NCBI GenBank assembly: GCA_021202925.1
Contig: JAJQCD010000016.1
Coordinates: 1 to 52,813, forward strand
Source: Clostridiales bacterium
Lineage (GTDB): Bacteria > Bacillota > Clostridia > Lachnospirales > Lachnospiraceae
Reading direction: 5' to 3'
Length of the DNA: 52,813 nt
The notes below the pieces were generated by a model. The model did not search any database. It saw only the letters and a list, made by a program, of their open reading frames with translations, and had not been told where the DNA came from. The number at the start of each line of letters is the position of its first letter. Positions within the stretch are counted from its first letter, which is position 1. The translations under genes were made by a program, and so were the position numbers. Of the stretch, positions 35,306 through 51,896 are shown one piece after another.

Positions 35306-36403
35306 TCAGTGCCTGGTGGAATAGCCCAGGTGCGGCTCGTTCTTCAGATTCGACAGGCGGCAGCCGCCAATCCGATCCAGCAATTCATCCTGATCCTTCA
35401 CCGAATAAACCCATTTGTCGAGATAATCTTCGAACGTTTCCGGAATCTTCGTTCCTGCTGCCGCATCGTCCGCGGCTTTCTGCGCCTTCTCTGCTGCCGC
35501 AGCCAGCTTCTCATCGCCTGGCTTCGCCTCGGCTGCCTTCGCCGCCTTCAACGCCGCCTTTGCAAGCTGCACCTTCGCGTCTTCCGCATCCTGATAATGA
35601 GACGCCCGGTCATATTCCTTCAGACCCGCATCGTCGTCATCGTAATAACCGTAGCACTGTGCCGGCCATGCGCCGTAAGGAGCCCGTACAACCGCATCCA
35701 CACACTGGCTGAAGACCTTCGTCTGCGTGGGATCACGCCGGATATATTCATCACTGACAATCTCTTCACAGGTAATGATTACCTTGCGGGCAGCGATCGC
35801 GATATCCACGTCGTGGAATTCATCGCCCATGATGATACAGGTTCCGTCCGGAGACGCCTGCTGAACATGAATGATCGCGGTATCCAGCTTCGGTACCGGT
35901 ACGGCAACCACCTTCTGCCCTGGCTCAAACGGATTCTCCACTTCGACGCACTTCAGATCATCCACGGTCGGCATCGTCTTGCGCTTTTCTGCGGAAATCC
36001 CCCATTCGGTCATCAGGCTCGAACCCTGCATCAGACGAACCGGCAGATACGGAAGCCCCAGGCTCGCCGCATGCAGCTGTAGCATCAGCACATCCTGTGA
36101 ATAATCCTCGTAGACCAGCTCACCCTTCTCGATTGCGGCACGGAACCGCCGGGAGACATTGGTGTAACCGGAATTTGCGGTATAGCAGTTGATATATGCC
36201 TTCACACGGCCCGCGCCGATCAGCATATCCCAGTCGCCGCCCGCCGGACCAGCCCAGACTGTGAAATCTCCCTGTCCCTGACGCAGAATCTCATACACCG
36301 CCGCATACGGCTTCCGGTTCGTCGTGAATCCGCCAAAGCAGATCGTATCGCCGTTCTCCACATATTTCGCAACGGCGTCATGCAAACTCATTACCTTATT
36401 CAA
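35306..36403 (-). CDS. gctA: Glutaconate CoA-transferase, subunit A, with an Ala/Lys-rich insert
   Basis: 365 residues from a TTG start at 36403, chosen because AGAGGAGGG lies 7 nt upstream and because the protein then begins (M)NKVMSLHDAVAKYVENGD, collinear with the MSKVMTLKDAIAKY start I recall for Acidaminococcus. An in-frame ATG at 36433 lies before that site. The domain matches GctA throughout (GGDWDMLIGAGRVKAYINCYTANSG, HVQQASPDGTCIIMG). It is about 45 residues longer than the 320-residue reference because of a low-complexity helical insert near residues 268-319 before FEDYLDKWVYSVKDQ. Partner of gctB. Confidence 0.93.
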   Translation of the reverse strand: MNKVMSLHDAVAKYVENGDTICFGGFTTNRKPYAAVYEILRQGQGDFTVWAGPAGGDWDMLIGAGRVKAYINCYTANSGYTNVSRRFRAAIEKGELVYEDYSQDVLMLQLHAASLGLPYLPVRLMQGSSLMTEWGISAEKRKTMPTVDDLKCVEVENPFEPGQKVVAVPVPKLDTAIIHVQQASPDGTCIIMGDEFHDVDIAIAARKVIITCEEIVSDEYIRRDPTQTKVFSQCVDAVVRAPYGAWPAQCYGYYDDDDAGLKEYDRASHYQDAEDAKVQLAKAALKAAKAAEAKPGDEKLAAAAEKAQKAADDAAAGTKIPETFEDYLDKWVYSVKDQDELLDRIGGCRLSNLKNEPHLGYSTRH

Positions 36404-36442
36404 AACGATTCCCTCCTCTGAATGTTCCTTCATATAAATTTT

Positions 36443-36964
36443 TTACTGCACTGTGAATAATGCCATGCCGCTCTCAACTGCGTCTCCGCCTTTTACATAG
36501 ACCGCTGTCAGCGTACCGTTTGCGGAAGACACAATTTCCGTTTCCATCTTCATTGCCTCGATCGTCAGAATCTTCTGTCCATATGTAACCGGCTGGCCAG
36601 GCGTCGCCAGAATGCTCAGCACCTTACCAGGCAACGGAGAGGTAACGGTCGTTCCACCTGCTGGTGCTGCCGGAGCCGGAGCCGCTGCAACCGATTGAGG
36701 CGCCGGGGCTGCAGGCCTGGGTGCGACTGGTGGCGGAGCCACTGGCGGCGCAGCTTTTGGCGCAGCTTTTGGCGCAGGTGCGGGAGCCGGTGCCGGAGCT
36801 GCTGTTGCCGGAACCGGTGCTGCCTTTGGAGCTGGCGCCTCGACTGGCGTAACCGGTGCACTCGCCCCTGCGGCTGCCTCCTCATGGCTGAGTAAATGGA
36901 ACGGCGAAACGCGCTCAACCTCGACCTCGTACCGATTTCCATTCATAGAAACGATATACTTCAT
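36443..36964 (-). CDS. gcdC: Glutaconyl-CoA decarboxylase, biotin carrier subunit
   Basis: 173 residues. An N-terminal domain (MKYIVSMNGNRYEVEVERV) is followed by an Ala/Pro-rich linker at about 35-105 and a C-terminal biotinyl domain with ILTIEAMKMETEIVSS; the Lys of AMKM should carry biotin. The linker lets biotin swing between GcdA and the membrane subunit. The linker DNA has a short tandem repeat (GGCGCAGCTTTT, two and a half copies near 36747-36776), which could change length. It lies 10 bp ahead of gctA. Confidence 0.93.
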   Translation of the reverse strand: MKYIVSMNGNRYEVEVERVSPFHLLSHEEAAAGASAPVTPVEAPAPKAAPVPATAAPAPAPAPAPKAAPKAAPPVAPPPVAPRPAAPAPQSVAAAPAPAAPAGGTTVTSPLPGKVLSILATPGQPVTYGQKILTIEAMKMETEIVSSANGTLTAVYVKGGDAVESGMALFTVQ

Positions 36965-37306: not shown

Positions 37307-37430
37307 AAATATGATGTATATTGCTATATTTAAAAATTTCCTTCATTTGCAATCGTATCCATCCATTTTTTACAAATTTTTCTTGTTATCTCTACAAATA
37401 ATTGGATTTTCGGCTCTTATTTTTCCGCCA

Positions 37431-41620: not shown

Positions 41621-42694
41621 CTATTCTGCAAGACCGGCCTTCAGATCTTCAACCTCTGCCGGATCCTCCTCATTCATCGTTGCAGCGTCACGCCAGTACG
41701 GCTCTGCATAGTAGGTAGCCAGCAAAGCAGCAAAATCTTCGCTCTCAACGACCTGCTTGCAGGCATCTGCCAGCTTCTGGACGATTGCCTCATCCGTACC
41801 CTTCGGGAACTTGACCTCATACTTCTTAGCCGTAACAACCTGATCGTACCCCTGCTCCGCGAAGGTCGGGAAATCAATTCCGTTCACGCGCTCCTCCGAC
41901 ATGATACCCAGGCAGATCAGATCGCCTGTCTCTATGTAATCCGCAACATTCATGTAGTTAATCGCAACGATATCAACCTGGCCGCCCATCAAAGCTGCCA
42001 TCCGGTCACCGGAAGATGTTCCGACGTCGATATTGTCAAACTCAACCCCCGCCTGCTTTTCCAGCATCTGACCAACATACTGCGTTGTGGAACCATACAC
42101 GGTAGAATAACGAACCGTTTTCGGATTCTCCTTCGCTTCCGCCAGCATATCTTCCAGAGAAGTCCATCCATGCGCATAATTGCTGTACTGACCATCCGCA
42201 GAGAGAGCAATCAGAGCATAGGTCTGGTCAATCGCGACCGTACACACATTTGTAAAATCATTGGTATAACTGAAATCGACCGTGCCCGTTGCCTCCTGTA
42301 CCAGAGAAGCGCCGGTATGGTTGAACAGAAGCGTATAACCGTCATTCGGCTTATTCATGACATCCATGGCGGCAACAATGCCCGAGCCACCCTCTTCGTT
42401 GGTCACGACAAAGGTCTGATTCAGAATATCGCCCACTCCCTTAAACAAGGCACGGCAATAAGTATCTGTGTCGCCGCCCGCCTTATATGGAAGAATGACA
42501 GAAACCGTACCGGTCGGCCAGTCCGTATCAAAGGATGCAGAAGCGGCAGCCGTTTCTGCTGTTGCAGCTGTCGTATCAGCCGCCGCAGCAGCTGTCGTGG
42601 AATTGCCTGACGAAGAACTGGAACTGGAACCGCACCCGGCCAGCGCAATGGCACTGAGGCCAAGCAACAACATGGACTTCATCATTTTTTTCAT
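41621..42694 (-). CDS. tctC: Tripartite tricarboxylate transporter, substrate-binding lipoprotein TctC (Bug family)
   Basis: 357 residues from ATG 42694 with AAAAAAGGAG upstream. The lipobox is LAGC (Cys21), followed by a Ser/Thr/Ala linker to about 55. The binding domain begins DTDWPTGTVSVILPYKAGGDTDTYCRALFKG, the usual Bug/TctC start, and includes NEEGGSGIVAAMDVMNKPNDGYTLLFNHTG and GGQVDIVAINY. Bug proteins bind di- and tricarboxylates, hydroxy-acids or aromatic acids through their carboxyl groups. First gene of a four-gene minus-strand operon headed by the shared promoter element at 42799-42855. Confidence 0.92.
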   Translation of the reverse strand: MKKMMKSMLLLGLSAIALAGCGSSSSSSSGNSTTAAAAADTTAATAETAAASASFDTDWPTGTVSVILPYKAGGDTDTYCRALFKGVGDILNQTFVVTNEEGGSGIVAAMDVMNKPNDGYTLLFNHTGASLVQEATGTVDFSYTNDFTNVCTVAIDQTYALIALSADGQYSNYAHGWTSLEDMLAEAKENPKTVRYSTVYGSTTQYVGQMLEKQAGVEFDNIDVGTSSGDRMAALMGGQVDIVAINYMNVADYIETGDLICLGIMSEERVNGIDFPTFAEQGYDQVVTAKKYEVKFPKGTDEAIVQKLADACKQVVESEDFAALLATYYAEPYWRDAATMNEEDPAEVEDLKAGLAE

Positions 42695-42798
42695 AGTATT
42701 CTTCTCCTTTTTTTCGCATATGATGATAGATCTGATTCCTTTTGACATTGCTTTGACGTCGGCCGACGAATCATTGCTCCTGTCTCTTTATATCCTCT

Positions 42799-42855
42799 AT
42801 TTTACTGAATATTTCTCACAAAGTAAAACAGTGCTTTTTGGTTGATCTGACAAAA
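42799..42855 (-). promoter_or_regulatory. Shared LysR-type promoter element, copy A (tctC side)
   Basis: Read on the minus strand: TTTTGTCA, 4 bp, AACCAAAA, 6 bp, GTTTTACTTTGTG (42855-42817). The -35 TTTACT lies in the last block (42822-42827), then a 17-bp spacer and TAAAAT (42799-42804). The same element precedes the RraA operon (copy B). Confidence 0.8.
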
Positions 42856-42947
42856 TATTTTTGTTATCATAAAATGCCAGAAGGGGCGAATCGCCTGTCA
42901 CGATCCGCCCCTCCTGGCATCATTCTCTCTCAAAAAACCCCGGTTCT

Positions 42948-43910
42948 TCACTCCCCTGCCGTTCTGCTGACCTCAGTATGCTCCACCTCATCAAAATATC
43001 CATGCAGCAAATCAACAAAATCCCGCGAATAATGCGCCAGATACCGATCCCGGCTTCGAACCAGAAACAGATCCTGGTACATCCGGTTTCCTTTATATAG
43101 AAGAGGAAAAATATTGGTTTCCTCCTGAATCTCGTCCCGGTGGGCAATCAGGTCCATCTGCGTGGTAAAGCATGCTGCAAGACCCTTGAGCCCCGTCACC
43201 GTACTGACACGGGTGTAATCGGTACTCAGATAAATTCTCGGATGAACCTTCTGCTCATCAAAGCACTGCTGAATCCGCCGTCCCATACGATTATTCAGAA
43301 CGGAAAACGGAATTTTCTCAAACCACCGGAGCAACGCCCCCTCCCGCGCCTTCTGTTTGATTTCGCCGGCTTCCTCTCCGTAAAACTGGTGAAGCAGCCG
43401 GTCAGACACAACCAGATAAATCTGATCATTCAGCAACGGCTCCGTCACAATGCGCTCATTGGATCGATTCCCCGCAATGATTGCCATATCCAGTTCCCCG
43501 TCCTCCACCATCGGTTCCAGCCGGTCTGTCACATTATTTGTCAACCGTATCTCTACGTTCGGATAACGTTCGCTGAAGACAGGAAGGACAACCGGCATAC
43601 AGGCATTCATGCGGAGTGTACTCGCGCCAAAACGGATGATGCCCCTCTCCTGCAGCTCAATATCCGACAGAATATCGCGCAGATTCGTCTGCTCATTATT
43701 CACAATCTTCGCAAACGCCAGCACATACTCTCCCGCCGATGTCAGCGCCAGAGATGGTTTCCGATACAACAGCCGGGTACCAAAATATTCTTCCAGCCGC
43801 TGAATATGATTGCTCAGCGTCTGCTGCGAAATAAACAGGCGGTTCGCCGTGTTCGTCATATGCAGATCCTTTGCCAGTTCAGCAAAATAATACAAACTTG
43901 TCATATCCAT
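42948..43910 (-). CDS. LysR-family transcriptional regulator of the carboxylate cluster
   Basis: 320 residues from ATG 43910 (MDMTSLYYFAELAKDLHMTNTANRL), with AGAGGGG 9 nt upstream; an in-frame ATG at 43946 lies before it. The DNA-binding part reads FISQQTLSNHIQRLEEYFGTRLLYRKPSLALTSAGEYVLAFA. Residues about 90-290 form the effector domain. It sits between two operons whose heads carry the same 39-bp element, so it is very probably the common regulator of both. The ligand is likely a carboxylate. Confidence 0.92.
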   Translation of the reverse strand: MDMTSLYYFAELAKDLHMTNTANRLFISQQTLSNHIQRLEEYFGTRLLYRKPSLALTSAGEYVLAFAKIVNNEQTNLRDILSDIELQERGIIRFGASTLRMNACMPVVLPVFSERYPNVEIRLTNNVTDRLEPMVEDGELDMAIIAGNRSNERIVTEPLLNDQIYLVVSDRLLHQFYGEEAGEIKQKAREGALLRWFEKIPFSVLNNRMGRRIQQCFDEQKVHPRIYLSTDYTRVSTVTGLKGLAACFTTQMDLIAHRDEIQEETNIFPLLYKGNRMYQDLFLVRSRDRYLAHYSRDFVDLLHGYFDEVEHTEVSRTAGE

Positions 43911-43982
43911 AATCCGATACCCCTCTTTCTGTTGACAGTTTATCATATTTTATCAGAAAATGGAACGCATGAAACAAATTAT

Positions 43983-44039
43983 TTTTGTCAAACTAACCAA
44001 AATATTCCGTTTTACTTTGTGGCAAAAAAAACGTAAGAT
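43983..44039 (+). promoter_or_regulatory. Shared LysR-type promoter element, copy B (RraA side)
   Basis: TTTTGTCA, 4 bp, AACCAAAA, 6 bp, GTTTTACTTTGTG (43983-44021). The -35 TTTACT (44011-44016), 17-bp spacer and TAAGAT (44034-44039) follow. 31 of 39 positions match copy A when both are read towards their genes. Confidence 0.8.
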
Positions 44040-44126: not shown

Positions 44127-44828
44127 ATGTCAGTTGGGAAAAGAATTTACCTGAAAAGAGAAATGCCGGATCACGACATCATGATGCAGTTCAAAACCAT
44201 CCCGGCATCAAATACTGCCGATGTGATGGGTCGCAGCTGCGCCATGAATCCGCGCATCCATCTGGTCAGCAGTCCGAAGGATCAGATGATGGTCGGTCCC
44301 GCCTTTACCGTAAAATGCCGTGCAGGCGACAACCTGGCGCTCCATGCGGCGCTGAACTTCTGCAACGAAGGCGACGTCCTGGTCGTCTCCAATGAGGAAG
44401 ACAATACCCGTGCGCTCATGGGCGAAGTGATGATGGCTTATCTGTATCTCTGCAAAAAGGTGGCCGGAATCATCCTCGACGGTCCGATCCGTGATATCGA
44501 CGAAATCGGCAACTGGGATTTCCCGGTCTATGCCACCGGCACCACCCCGGGCGGCCCCTACAAGGAAGGACCGGGCGAAGTGAACGTTCCGATTTCCTGC
44601 GGCGGCATCAGCGTCAATCCTGGCGATATCATCCTGGCCGACCCGGATGGCATTATCTGTATCCCGCGCAAGGACGCAGCCGTAATTCTGGAAGACGCAA
44701 AGAAATTCCAGGCGGCTGATGAAGGCAAGCTGGAGAAGACCCGGATGGGCACGATCAACCGCAGCTGGGTCGATAAGACGCTGGAGGCAAAGGAATTTGA
44801 GATCATTGACGATGTATATCGTCCGTAA
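44127..44828 (+). CDS. RraA-family protein (4-hydroxy-4-methyl-2-oxoglutarate aldolase type)
   Basis: 233 residues. The RraA/HMG-aldolase fold is clear: ASNTADVMGRSCAMNPRIHL, VGPAFTVKCRAGDNLALHAAL, GEVMMAYLYLCKKVAGIILDGPIRDIDEI and the end NVPISCGGISVNPGDIILADPDGIICIPRKDA. The metal/pyruvate motif (G-E-x(n)-R-D) is kept: GEVM and DGPIRD with the Arg-Asp pair. Enzymes of this type split 4-hydroxy-2-oxo acids to pyruvate, or decarboxylate oxaloacetate; true RNase E inhibitors lack these residues, and such a role is unlikely here. First gene of the plus-strand operon. Confidence 0.88.
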   Translation: MSVGKRIYLKREMPDHDIMMQFKTIPASNTADVMGRSCAMNPRIHLVSSPKDQMMVGPAFTVKCRAGDNLALHAALNFCNEGDVLVVSNEEDNTRALMGEVMMAYLYLCKKVAGIILDGPIRDIDEIGNWDFPVYATGTTPGGPYKEGPGEVNVPISCGGISVNPGDIILADPDGIICIPRKDAAVILEDAKKFQAADEGKLEKTRMGTINRSWVDKTLEAKEFEIIDDVYRP

Positions 44829-44896: not shown

Positions 44897-45925
44897 ATGG
44901 GTTGGAAAATTTTATTACCACAGGAAATTATGTCAGAAGGCCGCGCACTGCTGGAAAACGCCGGCCACACCATTATCGAAGGCCGCGGTTTTGAGACCGA
45001 AGATGTACTGGCAGACATGAAGGAATATCAGCCGGACGCCATGATCGTCCGCATCACCCCGATTACCCGTGAAGTGATCGAGGCAAACCCGAACTTAAAG
45101 GTCATCGTCCGCCACGGTGCCGGATTCGATGCACTCGATGTAAAAGCCTGCCATGACAATGGCGTGCAGACCCTCTACGCACCGGTTGCTAACAGCACCT
45201 CTGTCGCTGAGACCGCCCTGCTTCTGATTCTGGAATGCAGCCGCAATGTGACGGTTCTGCACAAGACCTGGGTCAGCGATTTTTACAAGGCCAAACTGAA
45301 AGTCCGCAAGACAACTTTGAATGGCAAAACAGTCGGCATCATCGGATGCGGCAACATCGGCAGCCGTCTCGCAAAGCGTGCGCTTGCCATGGAAATGAAC
45401 GTTCTGGCTTATGACCCGTACAAGTCGGCTGCAGATTTTCCGGATGGCGTCGAGGTCGTGCGCGATCTTGACCGCATCTTCAAAGAGAGCGACTATGTTT
45501 CCCTGCATGTGCCGAACACGCCCGTCACCCACAACATGGTCAACGCCAAAAAACTGGCCATGATGAAGCCTACCGCTTTCCTGATCAATACAGCCCGCGG
45601 CGGCTGCGTAGATGAAGACGCATTGTATGAAGCGTGCAAGAACGGTACGATCATGGGCGCCGGTCTGGACGCAATCAAGCAGGAACCGGTCTCTCCGGAC
45701 TTCCCGCTTCTTGAACTGGATAACGTCATCATTTATCCGCACATTGGCGGCAACACCGTCGAAGCCGCGCACCGCGCTTCCTATTTTGCTGCAATGGGCG
45801 TCCAGGAAGTATACGAAGGCAAAGAGCCGACCTGGCCGATCAACGATGTTGATTACACGACGGCAAAAACCTATGATGACACCAAAAAACCAGCTACAAA
45901 ACCTGCCGGAATGTTTGATTTTTAA
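44897..45925 (+). CDS. D-isomer-specific 2-hydroxyacid dehydrogenase
   Basis: 342 residues; start follows AATAAGGAGG. Catalytic domain and NAD-binding domain: GKTVGIIGCGNIGSRLAKRALAMEMNVLAYDP near 148-180 (GxGxxG), the substrate Arg in LINTARGGCVDEDALYEA near 235, Glu in GLDAIKQEPVS near 262 and His in IIYPHIGGNTVEAAHRA near 285. This is the phosphoglycerate dehydrogenase-like group that interconverts 2-hydroxy and 2-oxo acids with NAD(H). It probably feeds or drains the 2-oxo acid handled by the RraA-like enzyme. It is not closely similar to the 2-hydroxyglutarate dehydrogenase of Acidaminococcus as I recall it. Confidence 0.9.
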   Translation: MGWKILLPQEIMSEGRALLENAGHTIIEGRGFETEDVLADMKEYQPDAMIVRITPITREVIEANPNLKVIVRHGAGFDALDVKACHDNGVQTLYAPVANSTSVAETALLLILECSRNVTVLHKTWVSDFYKAKLKVRKTTLNGKTVGIIGCGNIGSRLAKRALAMEMNVLAYDPYKSAADFPDGVEVVRDLDRIFKESDYVSLHVPNTPVTHNMVNAKKLAMMKPTAFLINTARGGCVDEDALYEACKNGTIMGAGLDAIKQEPVSPDFPLLELDNVIIYPHIGGNTVEAAHRASYFAAMGVQEVYEGKEPTWPINDVDYTTAKTYDDTKKPATKPAGMFDF

Positions 45926-46061: not shown

Positions 46062-47315
46062 ATGAATCCGATTACTATCGCTTTACTGATATTGATTATC
46101 ACGATCGTTTTATTTATATGGGAGCCCTGGCCCATCATTGTTACCGCGATTGGTGCTTCCCTTGTCTTTGCCTACACCGGTCTGATCGCTATTGGCGACG
46201 TCTTCAAAGGTTACAACAGCACCACGATCGTCCTGTTGGCAGGCATGATGGTGATTGGTTCCTCCCTGTTTCACGCAGGAATCACGGATCTGATCGGCGA
46301 AAAAATGGTAAAACTCACAGGAAAAAATGAACGCAACATCATTCTGGCTACCCTGATCGTTTCCTGCCTGTTGAGTTCCGTATGCAGCAACATCGGCGTG
46401 ATGACTGCCATGGCTCCACTGGTAACCGCCATGTGTCTGGCTGCCGGTTTTGGCCCATCCAAAGCACTGCTTGCTCTGCTGTTCGGTTCTCAGTTCGGCG
46501 GCTTCGTCACACTGGTCGGCGTCGGTTCTAATGCTACCGCCAACAGCGTGATGGGAGAACTGGGACTGGATCCATTTGGCTTTTTCAGTATCACTCCCTT
46601 CGGAATCGGTATCTGCATTCTGGGTACCTTATACTTTACTTTCATCGGCAGCAGGCTGATCCCGGATACCGGCTATGTACCGGAATTTGCCAAGACAGAT
46701 AAAAAACCATTAGACAAAAAGAAAACGACCATTTCTGTCGTTACCCTGCTGTGTGTTCTGATCGTCATTGCCATGAGCCCTTCCAATCTTCCCATGCACA
46801 TTGCAGCCGTTATTGGTGCCCTTGTCATCGTCGGCACCAAATGCATGAGCGTAAAAGAAGCCATTGCGGCAATTGACTGGAACTGCATGTTACTCGTTGG
46901 CTCCCTGACCGCGATTTCCTCCGGCGTAGAGAACAGTGGCCTGGGCGACGCCATTGCCAATGCCATCCTCGGCGTCCTTGGCGAACATCCGAGCACGTTC
47001 CTGATCACTACGATCATCTTCTTTGCTGCTGCATTCCTGACCCAGGTAATGTCCAATATTCCAACCATCATGCTGTTCCTGCCAATTGGCATTTCCATTG
47101 CCAGCCAGCTTGGTGTCAGCCCGTATCCGGTAGCCATGACCATCACTCTCGCAGGCGCCGCATCCTATGCGACTCCGTTTGCTGCACCGCAGAATATGAT
47201 GACCGTCGGCTGGACACATTATAAATTCGTAGACTTTATTAAGATCGGCCTGCCCATGATGTTAATTACCTGGCTGGTTGTGGCAATTCTGGTTCCGATC
47301 TGTCTGCCATACTAA
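46062..47315 (+). CDS. SLC13/DASS-type anion transporter (ion transporter superfamily)
   Basis: 417 residues, about 11-12 membrane segments; start follows AAAGGAG. The two re-entrant motifs of the family are VCSNIGVMTAMAPLV and VGSNATANSVMG in the first half, and VMSNIPTIMLFLPIG with SYATPFAAPQNMM in the second. The SNxxT-like loops bind Na+ and a carboxylate in dicarboxylate/citrate carriers. It is a second carboxylate-type carrier besides TctABC in this cluster; it may act as exporter of a product or low-affinity importer. Follows a terminator-like hairpin. Confidence 0.85.
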   Translation: MNPITIALLILIITIVLFIWEPWPIIVTAIGASLVFAYTGLIAIGDVFKGYNSTTIVLLAGMMVIGSSLFHAGITDLIGEKMVKLTGKNERNIILATLIVSCLLSSVCSNIGVMTAMAPLVTAMCLAAGFGPSKALLALLFGSQFGGFVTLVGVGSNATANSVMGELGLDPFGFFSITPFGIGICILGTLYFTFIGSRLIPDTGYVPEFAKTDKKPLDKKKTTISVVTLLCVLIVIAMSPSNLPMHIAAVIGALVIVGTKCMSVKEAIAAIDWNCMLLVGSLTAISSGVENSGLGDAIANAILGVLGEHPSTFLITTIIFFAAAFLTQVMSNIPTIMLFLPIGISIASQLGVSPYPVAMTITLAGAASYATPFAAPQNMMTVGWTHYKFVDFIKIGLPMMLITWLVVAILVPICLPY

Positions 47316-48204: not shown

Positions 48205-48369
48205 TCACTAATCAAAATCCGGCATTGAGACTAATCAATGAGGTTAGCTCAATATAAGTTCTTCCACTTAAAAATGCCTGAAAATTCTCATTCTCTTTCA
48301 AATATTCTCGCATTCCCAAGTTTGTTTGCATTCATTCATCTTAAATCCTAATATTTTTGTGATTTTCTG

Positions 48370-48398
48370 TTTACAAAATCTAAATGTTATTGTAGTAT
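48370..48398 (+). promoter_or_regulatory. Promoter of the XRE regulator
   Basis: TTTACA (48370-48375), 17-bp spacer, TAGTAT (48393-48398), 30 bp before the start codon, in an AT-rich region that marks the start of the accessory segment. Confidence 0.6.
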
Positions 48399-48427
48399 TC
48401 AATATAAAGAAAAGTGAGGTGAAGCAT

Positions 48428-48922
48428 ATGACATTTGGAAAAAAATTAAAAGCCGCCAGAACAGAAGCAGGATTAAAGCAATCAGAACTCGCCAAACAGC
48501 TAAAAACAACAGGTAATACTATAAGTAACTGGGAAAATAATGTGAGTAAGCCAGATTTAGATACTCTTTCCTATATATGCGGCATTTTACACGTTACTGC
48601 TTCTTACTTTTTGCAGCCAACACTTCCAGAAGACGAAGTTTCCATAAAAGAATTGAAAATGATAAAAAAATACCGCGATCTCGATGACCCCGGGAGGGAA
48701 ACCGTGGATATTGTAATAGACAGAGAGTCTCAGCGCACTGCCCAACTTCGAAGATTGTCAACCTGGATCGCCAATCTGGAAACTGCTAGCCAGACCGACC
48801 TGGAGAATCCGCCTGATCCCGCAGCTCTGTCCGTTGATGAAAAGGTACAGCTATACCACCAGAAACTGGAGTGTGAGGAAAAAGCGGAGGAAAGATCCTC
48901 AGCTTTACAAGAAAACGCTTAG
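48428..48922 (+). CDS. XRE-family helix-turn-helix regulator
   Basis: 164 residues from ATG 48428, with AAAGTGAGGTGA upstream; the longer frame from 48326 overlaps the promoter. Residues 1-65 are an XRE helix-turn-helix (FGKKLKAARTEAGLKQSELAKQLKTTGNTISNWENNVSKPDLDTLSYICGIL). The rest is helical and charged and ends in DEKVQLYHQKLECEEKAEERSSALQENA, a tail that occurs again at 49911-49994. A repressor of nearby accessory genes or of itself is likely. Lower GC than the flanking core genes. Confidence 0.85.
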   Translation: MTFGKKLKAARTEAGLKQSELAKQLKTTGNTISNWENNVSKPDLDTLSYICGILHVTASYFLQPTLPEDEVSIKELKMIKKYRDLDDPGRETVDIVIDRESQRTAQLRRLSTWIANLETASQTDLENPPDPAALSVDEKVQLYHQKLECEEKAEERSSALQENA

Positions 48923-48998
48923 AGCAGATGACTGGATTATGCTGAGGGCGCATGGGGTACGAAACTCGATCGAATTATGAAAGTGAGGGAAAAAGAAT

Positions 48999-49271
48999 AT
49001 GATGTATCCGTTTATGGCACTGGATGACGATACTGAAATTGTACACTCGGACATGCAGCCTGATGGCCGGGTAAAGGTCTATATTGAGAAACCAGATGCA
49101 GAATACGGCTTCCGGCATGCCACCTGTTACCTTCCGGATTATACCTGGGAAGATATTTATCAATTTTCTCCTGACGATATTAAACACTATGAGGAAATTA
49201 TCAAGTCAACGGCACATCTGATTATCGAATTCTCGCAGGAGGGAGGATTTGAAAAAGCCACAAATTTTTAG
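48999..49271 (+). CDS. Small uncharacterised protein paired with a DUF4160 gene
   Basis: 90 residues (MMYPFMALDDDTEIVHSDM...); start follows GTGAGGG. Acidic, no membrane segment or Cys motif. It is rich in Tyr, Asp and Glu, with a C-terminal EEIIKSTAHLIIEFSQEGGFEKATNF. I recall similar proteins next to DUF4160 genes in gut Clostridia. It overlaps the DUF4160 gene by 23 bp in another frame. The pair resembles the DUF4160/DUF2442 pairs proposed as toxin-antitoxin modules. Function not established. Confidence 0.7.
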   Translation: MMYPFMALDDDTEIVHSDMQPDGRVKVYIEKPDAEYGFRHATCYLPDYTWEDIYQFSPDDIKHYEEIIKSTAHLIIEFSQEGGFEKATNF

Positions 49272-49533
49272 AGCCGGGGAATATTGGGTGTATTTCTGGA
49301 CAAATGAAAGTAAGCCTGTTGAACCCGTACATGTGCACATCTCAAAGGGGAAGCCATCAGAAACTGCAACCAAGGTCTGGATCACCAGCTATGGCAAGGT
49401 TCTGCTATGCAATAATAATTCCAGAATACCGGCGCATACTTTACGCAATATTATGAGGATGATTGAAGCCAGGAGTGATGATGTAATTAAGAAATGGTAC
49501 TTTTATTTCGGCGAAGTTCATTATTATTGCTGA
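49249..49533 (+). CDS. DUF4160 family protein
   Basis: 94 residues from a TTG start at 49249, preceded by GGAGGGAGG inside the previous gene. The family motif is the central EPVHVHISKGKP (H-x-H), preceded by GEYWVYFWTNESK. DUF4160 proteins are short, often paired with DUF2442 or similar proteins and predicted to be toxin-antitoxin components. Overlap with the upstream gene implies coupled translation. A second, broken copy of the family lies at 51316. Confidence 0.75.
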   Translation: MKKPQIFRAGEYWVYFWTNESKPVEPVHVHISKGKPSETATKVWITSYGKVLLCNNNSRIPAHTLRNIMRMIEARSDDVIKKWYFYFGEVHYYC

Positions 49534-49739
49534 GATTGTACATTTATGACGCCGATCGGGTTGAGATGAGTGTGCAGGCAACGATGACCCTGTATGTGGC
49601 AGATAAACCAGATCCGCATATCCATGGCCAGTTGGAAGCTCCTGAATTTCTGCATACTCATCTATGCAAACCATGTAAGCCGTACGAACAACACTTCGAA
49701 GCGCCTGTTCATTATTATATTATAAAATAGCTGCGCTTA
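49534..49739. other. Gene remnant region between DUF4160 and the XRE-tail gene
   Basis: No convincing complete gene. An open frame at 49494-49730 has a fragment with KPDPHIHGQL, weakly like a DUF4160 H-x-H segment, but no binding site. The segment 49545-49570 is repeated at 51257-51282 with one mismatch. Confidence 0.35.
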
Positions 49740-49994
49740 TTGATTACCTTCAGATCCCCTCACAATCTCATGGATGATATGGAACGGATGTTCTTTAAAG
49801 AATACCTTCAGCTTGACGAAGCGGAGCGATCCGCTGTGTCTGAATTTTTGAGAAAAGTATGTAAACCTGCAGAAGAATCCACTGCGGACCTTTCCAGCCT
49901 GTCGATTGATGAAAAAGTACAGCTATACCGTCAGGAACTGGAGCGTGAGGAAAAAGCAGCGGAAAGATCCGAGGCCTTACAAGAAAACGCTTAG
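49740..49994 (+). pseudogene. C-terminal remnant of an XRE-type regulator
   Basis: 84 residues with no helix-turn-helix. The end (SIDEKVQLYRQELEREEKAAERSEALQENA) matches the tail of the XRE protein at 48428-48922 in 24 of 30 residues, and about 100 bp of DNA including the stop is clearly homologous. No good ribosome binding site lies before the first start codon. It is probably the decayed 3' part of a duplicate; a short helical protein is still possible. Confidence 0.55.
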
Positions 49995-50034
49995 AACGGA
50001 TGATTGAATGAGAATGAGGGCGATAGAATAATGA

Positions 50035-50088
50035 AATGCGCATAATGTGTATTTATTTCTTGACATCAATGCGCATAATGTGTATAAT
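50035..50088 (+). promoter_or_regulatory. hicAB promoter with direct-repeat operator
   Basis: Perfect TTGACA (50060-50065), 17-bp spacer and perfect TATAAT (50083-50088). An 18-bp sequence with core ATGCGCATAATGTGTAT occurs at 50035-50052 and 50068-50085, 33 bp apart, so one copy covers the spacer and -10 box. This fits autorepression by the HicB antitoxin. Confidence 0.8.
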
Positions 50089-50111
50089 ATACTTGTAGGG
50101 AGGAAACAATC

Positions 50112-50294
50112 ATGCGGGCAATCGAACTGGAAAGAATTCTTTTACAGGATGGCTGGTACGAAAAGAACCAAAAAGGTTCTCATCGCCAGTACAAACACCC
50201 TGTCAAGCCTGGGAAAGTCACGATACCGTTTCATGCAGGCGATCTTGACAGAAAAACTGCTGATTCCATCCTTAAGCAGGCAGGGCTAAAATAA
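50112..50294 (+). CDS. hicA: HicA toxin (mRNA interferase)
   Basis: 60 residues; start follows AGGGAGGA. The fold is the small HicA double-stranded-RNA-binding-like domain: RAIELERILLQDGWYEKNQKGSHRQYKHP, with the catalytic His in GSHRQY, and KVTIPFHAGDLDRKTADSILKQAGL. HicA cleaves mRNA unless bound by HicB. It is directly upstream of hicB by 36 bp. Order and length are typical. Confidence 0.93.
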   Translation: MRAIELERILLQDGWYEKNQKGSHRQYKHPVKPGKVTIPFHAGDLDRKTADSILKQAGLK

Positions 50295-50330
50295 TCCCTG
50301 CTTGATAACGCAAAATTCGGAGGTGTTCTT

Positions 50331-50729
50331 ATGAAACTTGTTTATCCTGCGGTTTTTACGCCATGTGAAGAATTATCCGGCTATACGGTAGAGATCCCAG
50401 ACCTTCCCGGTTGCGTGACAGAAGGGCGGAGCCTGGTGGAAGCAATCGAAATGGGCGAAGATGCGGCAAGCGGCTGGATTCTGGATGAAATGGAAGATGG
50501 AAACGCTTATCCCGCCCCCAGCGACTATAAGGCCATTGCCTGCCCCGCTGGTAGCTTTGTGAATCTTCTGGTTTTGGATATGGATGCTTACGCTGAAAAA
50601 TACGGTTCTAAATCTGTACGTAAAAACATCACCATTCCCGCCTGGCTCAATACCTACGGTGAAAAGAATAATATCAATTTCTCTAAAGTTCTCCAGGATG
50701 CACTTGTAACGGTAGCGCAGGGGAAATAA
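50331..50729 (+). CDS. hicB: HicB antitoxin
   Basis: 132 residues; start follows CGGAGGTG. The N-terminal partial RNase H-like fold (FTPCEELSGYTVEIPDLPGCVTEGRSLVEAIEMGEDAASGWI) is followed by a ribbon-helix-helix-like tail (SVRKNITIPAWLNTYGEKNNINFSKVLQDAL) that should bind the direct repeats in the promoter. It neutralises HicA and represses the operon. Confidence 0.93.
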   Translation: MKLVYPAVFTPCEELSGYTVEIPDLPGCVTEGRSLVEAIEMGEDAASGWILDEMEDGNAYPAPSDYKAIACPAGSFVNLLVLDMDAYAEKYGSKSVRKNITIPAWLNTYGEKNNINFSKVLQDALVTVAQGK

Positions 50730-50759
50730 GTGCAGTCTTACAAAAAGGGATGTGAGATC

Positions 50760-51050
50760 ATGACGAACTTTAAGGATTATTTGAATGAACAGTTGCAGCA
50801 GAATCCGGAGCTGCGGGAAGAATATGATGCGCTGGAACCGGAATTTTCTTTCATGCAGGCGATGATCGATGCGCGGCGCGAAACAGGCATAACACAGAAA
50901 CAACTTGCAGAACGTACCGGTATATCTCAGGGCGATATAAACAAATTTGAGAGTGGCGGTGGGAATCCGTCCATAAGAACGGTAAAGAGGATCGCGGCCG
51001 GTTTGGGCATGCGGGTAAAGATAGAATTCCAGCCAATGACATGGGTATAA
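50760..51050 (+). CDS. XRE-type antitoxin-like regulator (HigA-like)
   Basis: 96 residues from ATG 50760 (a GTG at 50730 directly after the hicB stop is an alternative). An N-terminal FKDYLNEQLQQNPELREEYDALEPEFSFMQAMIDARRETGITQKQLAERTGISQGDINKFESGGGNPSIRTVKRIAAGL helix-turn-helix fits antitoxins of the HigBA/RelBE group. No toxin gene of that kind is beside it, so it is either an orphan or a third gene of the hic unit, 30 bp after hicB. Confidence 0.8.
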   Translation: MTNFKDYLNEQLQQNPELREEYDALEPEFSFMQAMIDARRETGITQKQLAERTGISQGDINKFESGGGNPSIRTVKRIAAGLGMRVKIEFQPMTWV

Positions 51051-51077
51051 AATATATATTTTATTATAATATTTTTC

Positions 51078-51231
51078 TACCGTATAATGAAGCTGCAAAC
51101 GCATAAAACATATTGAATGAAATCTGAAGACGGAACAGGCAGCCGTCACCCAATGTTAGGAGATGTGGATTGTCACCCACCTATTTCATTCAATCGTTTC
51201 AGGCAGATAGCTTCGGTTATCTGCCTTTTTT
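51078..51231 (+). ncRNA. Candidate structured RNA with its own terminator
   Basis: A TATAAT (51083-51088) lies about 25 bp before a perfect 12-bp helix: 51112-51123 pairs with 51183-51194. Inside it, GACGG/CCGTC (51129-51133 with 51143-51147) and GTGG/CCAC (51165-51168 with 51177-51180) make two further hairpins, a three-way junction. A strong terminator (51202-51231) follows after 7 nt. There is no plausible reading frame. About 130-145 nt. I do not recognise the family. Confidence 0.6.
51202..51231 (+). terminator. Terminator of the candidate RNA
   Basis: GGCAGATA (51202-51209) pairs with TATCTGCC (51218-51225), then TTTTTT. Confidence 0.85.
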
Positions 51232-51315
51232 CATTAAGGATGGGATTACGATGGGTATGACGCCGATCGGATTGAGATGAGGGCGCATAGAGTATAAAAA
51301 GAGAGGAATTTAGAA

Positions 51316-51582
51316 ATGCCTGAATTAAGCAGATTTTGTGGAATAATTATCAAAATGCTATTCGAAGATACTACTCAGCACAACAAACCACATATTCACG
51401 TTTTTTATGGGTAATACAAAGCATCTGTTGGACTGGACGGTGAAATTTTATCCGGTCGTCTCCCCCAAAAACAGTACCGCATGTTAATTGCGTGGCTTAC
51501 TCTTCACGAAGAAGAAGTATATGCCGCATGGAACAAAGCTGTGCGATGCGAACCTTTTGAAAAAATCAAACCATTGCAATAA
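51316..51582 (+). pseudogene. DUF4160 family gene interrupted by a stop codon
   Basis: ATG 51316 follows AGAGAGGAA. The frame reads MPELSRFCGIIIKMLFEDT and NKPHIHVFYG, then TAA at 51412-51414, then continues YKASVGLDGEILSGRLP to TAA at 51580-51582. The family normally has Glu (GAA) at the TAA position (HIHVFYGEYKA), so one base change explains it. It precedes a DUF2442 gene by 14 bp, the usual partner. The stop may be a natural knock-out of this pair. Confidence 0.8.
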
Positions 51583-51596
51583 AGGAGGAATCATTT

Positions 51597-51896
51597 ATGT
51601 ATGTTCTTAACGGAATTGTTTACGCAAGCGAACCATCTGAAGATATGAAGATCACGGCCGCCAAAGCCCTCGATGACATGATTATGATACTGACCTTTTC
51701 CACCGGCGAGACGCGATTATTTGACGCAACCGAGCTGACCGGGCCTGTATTTGAACCGTTGAAAGACGATGCTGTTTTCCGGAACTTCCGTCTTGTCCAT
51801 GGAGCGGTCACCTGGATGAACGGAGAAATTGATTGCTCACCAGAATACATGTACGATCACAGTTATGAATACATCAGCCCGGAAGCAGCTGTGTAA
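51597..51896 (+). CDS. DUF2442 family protein
   Basis: 99 residues; start follows AAAGGAGGAA. It has the DUF2442 pattern: DDMIMILTFSTGETRLFDATELTGPVFEPLKDDAVFRNFRLVHGAVTWMNGEIDCSPEYMYDHSYE. DUF2442 proteins accompany DUF4160 proteins in putative toxin-antitoxin pairs. The upstream DUF4160 gene carries a nonsense codon, so this partner is now alone. Confidence 0.82.
   Translation: MYVLNGIVYASEPSEDMKITAAKALDDMIMILTFSTGETRLFDATELTGPVFEPLKDDAVFRNFRLVHGAVTWMNGEIDCSPEYMYDHSYEYISPEAAV

What the first reader, a model, noticed from the sequence alone, without database searches (positions are those of the whole stretch)
42799..44039. One LysR gene flanked by two near-identical promoter elements driving two divergent operons
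The element TTTTGTCA-N4-AACCAAAA-N6-GTTTTACTTTGTG occurs at 42855-42817 (minus, towards tctC) and at 43983-44021 (plus, towards the RraA gene), on either side of the LysR gene. 31 of 39 positions agree and spacing is exact. Each copy contains the -35 TTTACT followed after 17 bp by TAAAAT or TAAGAT. This ties eight genes into one regulon by sequence alone, including two carriers and two hydrolases that otherwise look unrelated.
Basis: partly seen in the sequence, partly recalled or inferred. Interest (0 to 1): 0.85.

Follow-up and report, generated by a model that had tools for sequence, protein, structure and literature searches.

The report
LysR switch with two matching promoters
One LysR-type regulator gene sits between two gene sets whose promoters carry the same strongly conserved operator, so both sets are very probably controlled together to take up and break down an unidentified organic acid; the mechanism looks ordinary, the regulator and pathway look undescribed.

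Summary
In detail: the 39-bp pattern lies at both places, 31/39 identical, and nowhere else in the 3.17-Mb genome at up to 3 mismatches. Its borders need redrawing. In 85 related loci dyad plus distal arm occurs 73 times at exactly these spacings, against 0-12 at the other spacings tried; the -10 box, not used for selection, falls at one distance in 62 of 76. Elements precede RraA, TctC, CitMHS, amidohydrolase and dehydrogenase genes and track this LysR clade (44/4/12/25 loci). In 25 of 33 loci with both RraA and TctA the two lie on one strand within 8.5 kb. A profile trained without the window finds only these two strong sites in the genome (E 6e-10, 2e-6; next 0.03). Best reading: a LysR-type regulator, operator centred near -65 and a second site over -35, controls two operons and probably itself. 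New member of a known kind. Ligand, pathway and sign of control are unproven. Two Oscillibacter loci keep all eight genes without the element.

The parts
42799..42865 (-). Promoter-operator A, directed at tctC (67 bp)
   Evidence: 0 mismatches to the relatives' pattern; weight matrix trained without the window 60.4 bits; profile E 6.3e-10 in the whole genome
42850..42864 (-). Dyad ACAA-N7-TTGT of A, centre about -65 if the -10 box spans -12 to -7
   Evidence: position is inferred, no start site mapped
42822..42827 (-). -35 box TTTACT of A, overlapping the distal arm YGTT (42827-42830)
42799..42804 (-). -10 box TAAAAT of A
   Evidence: TAnnAT at the same offset in 62 of 76 elements
43973..44039 (+). 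Promoter-operator B, directed at the RraA gene, in the lysR/RraA divergent gap (67 bp)
   Evidence: 0 mismatches; 47.0 bits; profile E 1.8e-6 over model positions 1-53
43974..43988 (+). Dyad ACAA-N7-TTGT of B; 64 bp upstream of the conserved lysR start codon, so probably also the autoregulatory site
   Evidence: autoregulation inferred
44011..44016 (+). -35 box TTTACT of B, overlapping the distal arm YGTT (44008-44011)
44034..44039 (+). -10 box TAAGAT of B
42948..43946 (-). LysR-type regulator, 332 aa as called; relatives begin at residue 13 (start codon 43910)
   Evidence: Pfam HTH_1 and LysR_substrate; alignment of 47; model mean pLDDT 91 matches full-length LTTR structures
42874..42920 (-). 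Terminator-like hairpin (20 pairs) after lysR, upstream of element A
41621..42748 (-). tctC, substrate-binding protein of a tripartite tricarboxylate-type transporter
   Evidence: PF03401
41077..41631 (-). tctB
   Evidence: PF07331
39535..41061 (-). tctA
   Evidence: PF01970
38361..39587 (-). amidohydrolase
   Evidence: PF01979/PF07969; best solved relative 8je0 'Amidase' E 2.1e-57
44127..44828 (+). RraA-like aldolase/decarboxylase family protein
   Evidence: PF03737; best solved relative 3noj, 4-carboxy-4-hydroxy-2-oxoadipate aldolase/oxaloacetate decarboxylase, E 9.3e-25
44897..45925 (+). D-isomer specific 2-hydroxyacid dehydrogenase
   Evidence: PF02826/PF00389; best solved relative 1wwk, phosphoglycerate dehydrogenase
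46062..47315 (+). CitMHS/DASS-type anion transporter
   Evidence: PF03600
47328..48188 (+). DUF6282 protein, possible metal-dependent hydrolase
   Evidence: PF19799; Amidohydro_2 only below its cut-off

Best explanation
The LysR-type protein binds a 67-bp operator-promoter before tctC and before the RraA gene. Its anchor is the dyad ACAA-N7-TTGT, centred near -65; a degenerate second site (conserved AA, then YTGTT) sits 22 bp downstream and overlaps the -35 box (TTGAnT in relatives, TTTACT here). When the inducer, probably the substrate or an intermediate of the pathway, binds the C-terminal domain, the tetramer shifts on the second site and lets RNA polymerase start at both promoters together, giving tctCBA-amidohydrolase and RraA-dehydrogenase-CitMHS-DUF6282. 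Site B also lies over the lysR control region, so lysR probably regulates itself. Shown by sequence: the two elements, their uniqueness in the genome, the fixed geometry and association with the LysR clade in relatives. Inferred: binding, inducer, activation rather than repression, transcript borders, and the role of the genes (uptake and breakdown of a di- or tricarboxylic hydroxy acid).
For: Both copies match the relatives' pattern exactly; the genome has no other match at 0 mismatches, and 2 at 2 mismatches against 3 for the control. Leave-out weight matrix 60.4 and 47.0 bits, other sites at most 16.7 (that one is site B read backwards), then 4.0; leave-out profile E 6.3e-10 and 1.8e-6, next 0.0286. 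In 85 loci, 1.39 Mb: 73 elements at N19 against 0-12 at each other spacing 0-40, dyad spacer 7 gives 73 against 0-3 for 0-14, reversed control 0. TAnnAT, AA in the spacer and TT after the -35 were not selected for and are conserved. Clade LysR and element in the same locus: 44 both, 4 LysR only, 12 element only, 25 neither (Fisher 8.6e-9, loci related). Element before RraA and TctC in 6 loci. Full pattern in 35 of 45 genomes, 50 matches, control 0; 44 of 50 in the module loci. Regulator has LTTR domains and fold. Geometry agrees with passages read on LTTRs.
Against: No binding, start-site or expression data. Eleven positions of the 73 elements are fixed by the search pattern, so their conservation is not independent; the loci are related. 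12 loci have the element but no clade LysR in the stretch held, and 12 of 47 clade LysR genes have no exact element within 500 bp; some of these have it elsewhere in the locus. Four loci with clade LysR have no exact element, two of them a 1-mismatch form. L072 and L079 keep all eight genes without the element. The dyad is C-N11-G where LTTR boxes usually have T-N11-A. Two of 50 genome matches lie beside an unrelated LysR gene, so the geometry is not wholly specific to this clade.
Confidence: 0.85

Rival explanations
1. The LysR protein is chiefly a repressor of both operons, as CcpC is of citB: it occupies the upstream dyad and the site over -35 and leaves when the ligand binds.
For: Same anatomy as described for CcpC: dyad centred at -66 plus half dyad near -27 to -33, citrate weakens binding (passages of PMC8514465). 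CcpC is the nearest solved relative by sequence. The second site here overlaps the -35 box.
Against: Operator centred near -65 with divergent gene order is the usual LTTR activator layout (passages of PMC5603801). Sequence alone cannot decide.
Confidence: 0.25
2. Another protein, not the neighbouring LysR product, binds the element.
For: 12 of 85 loci have the element without a clade LysR in the stretch held; two elements in other genomes lie beside an unrelated LysR gene.
Against: 44 of 48 loci with clade LysR carry the element against 12 of 37 without; several of the 12 are short contigs or have the regulator possibly outside the stretch; the dyad-plus--35 geometry is that of LysR proteins.
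Confidence: 0.06
3. The likeness of the two copies is a by-product of a recent duplication or of AT-rich promoter composition and means nothing for regulation.
For: Both regions are AT-rich; the copies are 31/39 identical.
Against: Flanks are unlike; 0 in shuffles; the same geometry in relatives.
Confidence: 0.02

Closest known systems
CcpC of Bacillus (LysR-type, citrate-responsive; PMC8514465, passages read)
   Same: LysR protein; operator of a full dyad centred at -66 and a half dyad over -33 to -27; nearest solved structure by sequence (5z72, E 1e-20).
   Different: CcpC boxes are ATAA/TTAT, here ACAA/TTGT; CcpC controls citrate synthase/aconitase genes by repression; the window protein scores 88 bits on the NCBIfam CcpC model, cut-off 400, so it is not CcpC.
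BenM/CatM of Acinetobacter (PMC6628147, passages read)
   Same: 4-7-4 dyad (ATAC-N7-GTAT) as site 1, weaker downstream sites, tetramer shifting between sites with effector; divergent target.
   Different: Other box letters (T-N11-A there, C-N11-G here), other genes, other effectors; full-length fold match only 18% identical.
PnpM/PnpR-type LTTR regulons with several operons under one regulator (PMC5603801, passages read)
   Same: One LTTR, several promoters each with a site near -65 and one near -35.
   Different: Aerobic aromatic degradation; there the second site is said to have no conserved motif, here the -39 to -29 stretch is conserved together with the -35 box.

Membership tests
LysR-type transcriptional regulator (LTTR) | N-terminal HTH_1 and C-terminal LysR_substrate domain | tested here: met
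   HTH_1 1.1e-15, LysR_substrate 1.2e-20, both above cut-off; fold matches full-length LTTRs
LysR-type transcriptional regulator (LTTR) | Gene beside and divergent from a target, with the operator in the gap | tested here: met
   Element B lies between lysR (-) and RraA (+); element within 500 bp of the LysR start in 35 of 47 clade members with at least 250 bp upstream
LysR-type transcriptional regulator (LTTR) | Dyad centred near -65 | tested here: met
   Dyad end to TAnnAT is 45 bp in 62 of 76 elements, centre -65 if the -10 box is at -12 to -7; start site not mapped
LysR-type transcriptional regulator (LTTR) | T-N11-A inside the dyad | tested here: not met
   ACAA-N7-TTGT gives C-N11-G at the place where ATAC-N7-GTAT gives T-N11-A; an exception for the box, not for the protein family
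LysR-type transcriptional regulator (LTTR) | Second site near -35 | tested here: met
   Conserved AA then YTGTT, the latter over the -35 box, 22 bp from the first dyad; both arms at least 3 of 4 in 25 of 73 elements, so degenerate
LysR-type transcriptional regulator (LTTR) | Ligand-dependent binding and activation | not testable with these tools
   needs bench work
CcpC | NCBIfam equivalog score at or above 400 | tested here: not met
   88.3 bits over residues 13-180
CcpC | ATAA/TTAT box | tested here: not met
   ACAA/TTGT at both copies against the boxes

The most novel reading that the evidence does not exclude
An undescribed LysR clade with its own operator (ACAA-N7-TTGT-N19-YGTT, -10 at a fixed distance) marks a transferable catabolic module of anaerobes, spread over Lachnospiraceae, Oscillospiraceae, Synergistaceae and Acidaminococcaceae-type genomes, whose pathway (RraA-like aldolase, D-2-hydroxyacid dehydrogenase, amidohydrolase, DUF6282, interchangeable carboxylate carriers) is not in print. 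The operator can then be used to find further members, such as the CitMHS-like plus amidohydrolase units at separate places (L143, L144, L147).
Probability: 0.55. Interest if true: 0.5.

Novelty: new member of a known kind. Interest (0 to 1): 0.35.

Why it matters
The control logic is the textbook LysR type, so the finding does not change ideas on regulation. It does give a sharp, testable operator for an unstudied regulator, closes the regulon in this genome to two promoters and eight genes plus lysR itself, and links carriers, hydrolases, an aldolase-type enzyme and a dehydrogenase of unknown substrate in gut and rumen anaerobes. That makes the substrate question approachable: the inducer should be the substrate or a product near it.

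Tried and rejected
The literal 39-mer in the family: found in 1 of 299 genomes, this one; dropped in favour of the pattern drawn from relatives.

LysR as a single query in genome contigs and viral contigs gave no relatives. Further targets in this genome: candidates at 2-3 mismatches or E 0.03 and above are no more than the controls give; the E 0.0286 match covers only positions 34-67 and I judged it chance after reading its surroundings, without a gene call there. A third exact dyad at 37372, between the CoA-transferase/biotin-carrier genes and an AraC gene, lacks the distal arm; 28 of 101 exact dyads in 1.39 Mb lack it, about one per window, so chance. In one search the dyad-spacer control used N18 by mistake; redone with N19. 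Score tables per gene are weak for TctC (4 of 26), CitMHS (4 of 18), amidohydrolase (3 of 40) and dehydrogenase (5 of 47), as expected when the gene is inside an operon, and were not used alone.

Substrate: nearest solved relatives name families, not the compound; DUF6282 has none at E 0.1. Paper searches for the module or box found nothing on it: all four terms RraA, tripartite tricarboxylate, 2-hydroxyacid dehydrogenase and LysR, 0 papers; DUF6282, 0; three of those terms, 0; a looser set, 8 listed, none on this judging by title and abstract start; box strings, 0. Only the open-licence library was searched.

Full report
Observation. The stated pattern is present at 42817-42855 (minus) and 43983-44021 (plus) with no mismatch, with none expected in shuffles, and only there in the 3,172,346-base genome at up to 3 mismatches. 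The copies agree at 31 of 39 positions; flanks do not. The -35/-10 claims hold. Genes: lysR (-) lies between tctC-tctB-tctA-amidohydrolase (-) and RraA-like, D-2-hydroxyacid dehydrogenase, CitMHS-type carrier and DUF6282 (+). A 20-pair terminator-like hairpin separates lysR from the tct promoter.

Relatives. The LysR protein has few close relatives: 11 of 397 family genomes match at E 1e-58, at 36-51% identity apart from its own, and none of the other 23 genomes of its genus searched does at E 1e-60. Around those relatives lie RraA-like and dehydrogenase genes often about 80-90% identical to the window's. A scan of genome contigs with eight RraA-like proteins gave 98 relatives, best 80 kept: Lachnospiraceae, Oscillospiraceae, Synergistaceae, Acidaminococcus, Phascolarctobacterium, a few others, and six Lactobacillus loci at 63-66%. 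With the window and eleven loci, less seven duplicates, 85 loci of 1.39 Mb were studied.

Same genes, other arrangements. RraA-like and TctA genes are both present in 33 of the 85 loci; in 25 they lie on one strand within 8.5 kb, in 8 (window included) otherwise; all eight gene families occur in five loci: window, L057, L060, L072, L079 (families at 30% identity or more to the window's proteins). So the two operons are one functional set, split here.

The true element. Reading the intergenic stretches showed a common form, ACAA-N7-TTGT, then YGTT, then a -10 box. The pattern ACAA-N7-TTGT-N17..19-YGTT has 76 matches; 73 have N19, while each other spacing from 0 to 40 gives 0-12; the dyad spacer of 7 gives 73, other values from 0 to 14 give 0-3; the reversed pattern gives 0. 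Of 101 exact dyads in the loci, 73 carry the distal arm. TAnnAT, not part of the pattern, stands 45 bp after the dyad in 62 of 76, and AA at -48/-47 and TT at -30/-29 are conserved too. If the -10 box spans -12 to -7, the dyad is centred at -65 and the distal arm lies at -38 to -35, overlapping a -35 box of TTGAnT type. Both window copies match the full pattern exactly. A weight matrix from the other loci scores them 60.4 and 47.0 bits; next come 16.7 (site B read backwards) and 4.0.

Regulon size here. With a profile of 70 elements, none from the window, the genome gives E 6.3e-10 (A) and 1.8e-6 (B, positions 1-53), next 0.0286 and weaker; first-look candidates were 1170, of which 150 were scored. 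The pattern scan gives 2 exact and 2 two-mismatch matches against 3 for its control. So two promoters are the whole predicted regulon.

Pairing with the LysR clade. In 85 loci: 44 with clade LysR and element, 4 LysR only (two with a one-mismatch element), 12 element only, 25 neither (Fisher 8.6e-9, an overstatement since loci are related). Of 47 clade LysR genes with at least 250 bp upstream, 35 have an element within 500 bp; of 7 other LysR genes listed, none (one of the seven, in L066, is a cut clade member with the element further off). Several loci carry one element per transcription unit: RraA and TctC in window, L051, L057, L060, L068, L090 (in L051 and L068 the TctC is only 27% identical), RraA and dehydrogenase in L040, RraA and amidohydrolase in L067 and L070.

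Whole genomes. Of 48 loci named, 47 lay in 45 held genomes; 35 of 45 have the full pattern, 50 matches, control 0. 44 of the 50 lie in the module loci; of the other six, four stand before CitMHS-type plus amidohydrolase or DUF6282 genes (L143, L144, L147, L148), two beside an unrelated LysR gene and another set of genes (L145, L146). Ten genomes lack it. Fifteen genomes, mostly without the element, were searched with the LysR alignment at E 1e-60: 10 have a match, several weak; five have none, among them that of L079 (Oscillibacter valericigenes), L098, and two Lactobacillus. L072 (O. ruminantium) has two weaker LysR matches elsewhere but no element; L089, L090 and L101 have strong LysR matches while the full pattern without mismatch is missing, though L089 and L090 carry the dyad-plus-arm form.

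Mechanism. The regulator has the LysR domains and a confident model (mean pLDDT 91) matching full-length CysB, CcmR, BenM, CbnR and OxyR structures at 16-20% identity. Passages of three papers give the frame: LTTR sites near -65 and -35 (PMC5603801), 4-7-4 dyads and shift between sites with effector (PMC6628147), CcpC with a dyad at -66 and a half dyad near -30 (PMC8514465). The window fits this anatomy; its box has C-N11-G instead of T-N11-A. Activation by a pathway compound is the likeliest mode; repression as in CcpC is the main rival. Arg112 of the ligand domain is invariant in the 47 aligned regulators, which would suit a carboxylate ligand; that is inference. The pathway is inferred from families only: carriers for carboxylates, a dehydrogenase for 2-hydroxy acids, an aldolase or decarboxylase of the RraA type (nearest solved relative a carboxy-hydroxy-oxoadipate aldolase) and two hydrolase-like proteins.

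Verdict. Real, correctly spotted, wrongly bordered, and of a known kind; regulator, operator and pathway look undescribed in the library searched.

Noticed in passing
42874-42920: Strong terminator-like hairpin on the minus strand after lysR, insulating the tct promoter from lysR read-through.
   Followed up: partly
37372-37386: Third exact ACAA-N7-TTGT dyad in the gap between CoA-transferase/biotin-carrier genes (-) and an AraC gene (+), without the distal arm; about one per window expected.
   Followed up: partly
35306-36964: CoA-transferase and biotin-carrier proteins, resembling a glutaconate-type fermentation cluster (name recalled), next to the regulon.
   Followed up: no
48326-51896: Group of small genes after the regulon: XRE-type repressors, DUF4160, HicB-like antitoxin, DUF2442, looking like toxin-antitoxin or mobile material.
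   Followed up: no
L143:1340-3833, L144:2284-4737, L147:1723-4374: A second unit, CitMHS-like carrier (about 31% identical) plus amidohydrolase, with the same element upstream, away from the main module.
   Followed up: partly
L145:1762, L146:4890: Same geometry (ACAAC..GTTGTAAC) beside an unrelated LysR gene and a different set of genes.
   Followed up: no
L067:12148-13467, L058:12125-13561, L039:15048-15959: The module swaps parts between species: a DASS-type carrier (L058), another carrier-like protein without Pfam match (L067), a DUF1932 dehydrogenase-like protein (L039).
   Followed up: partly
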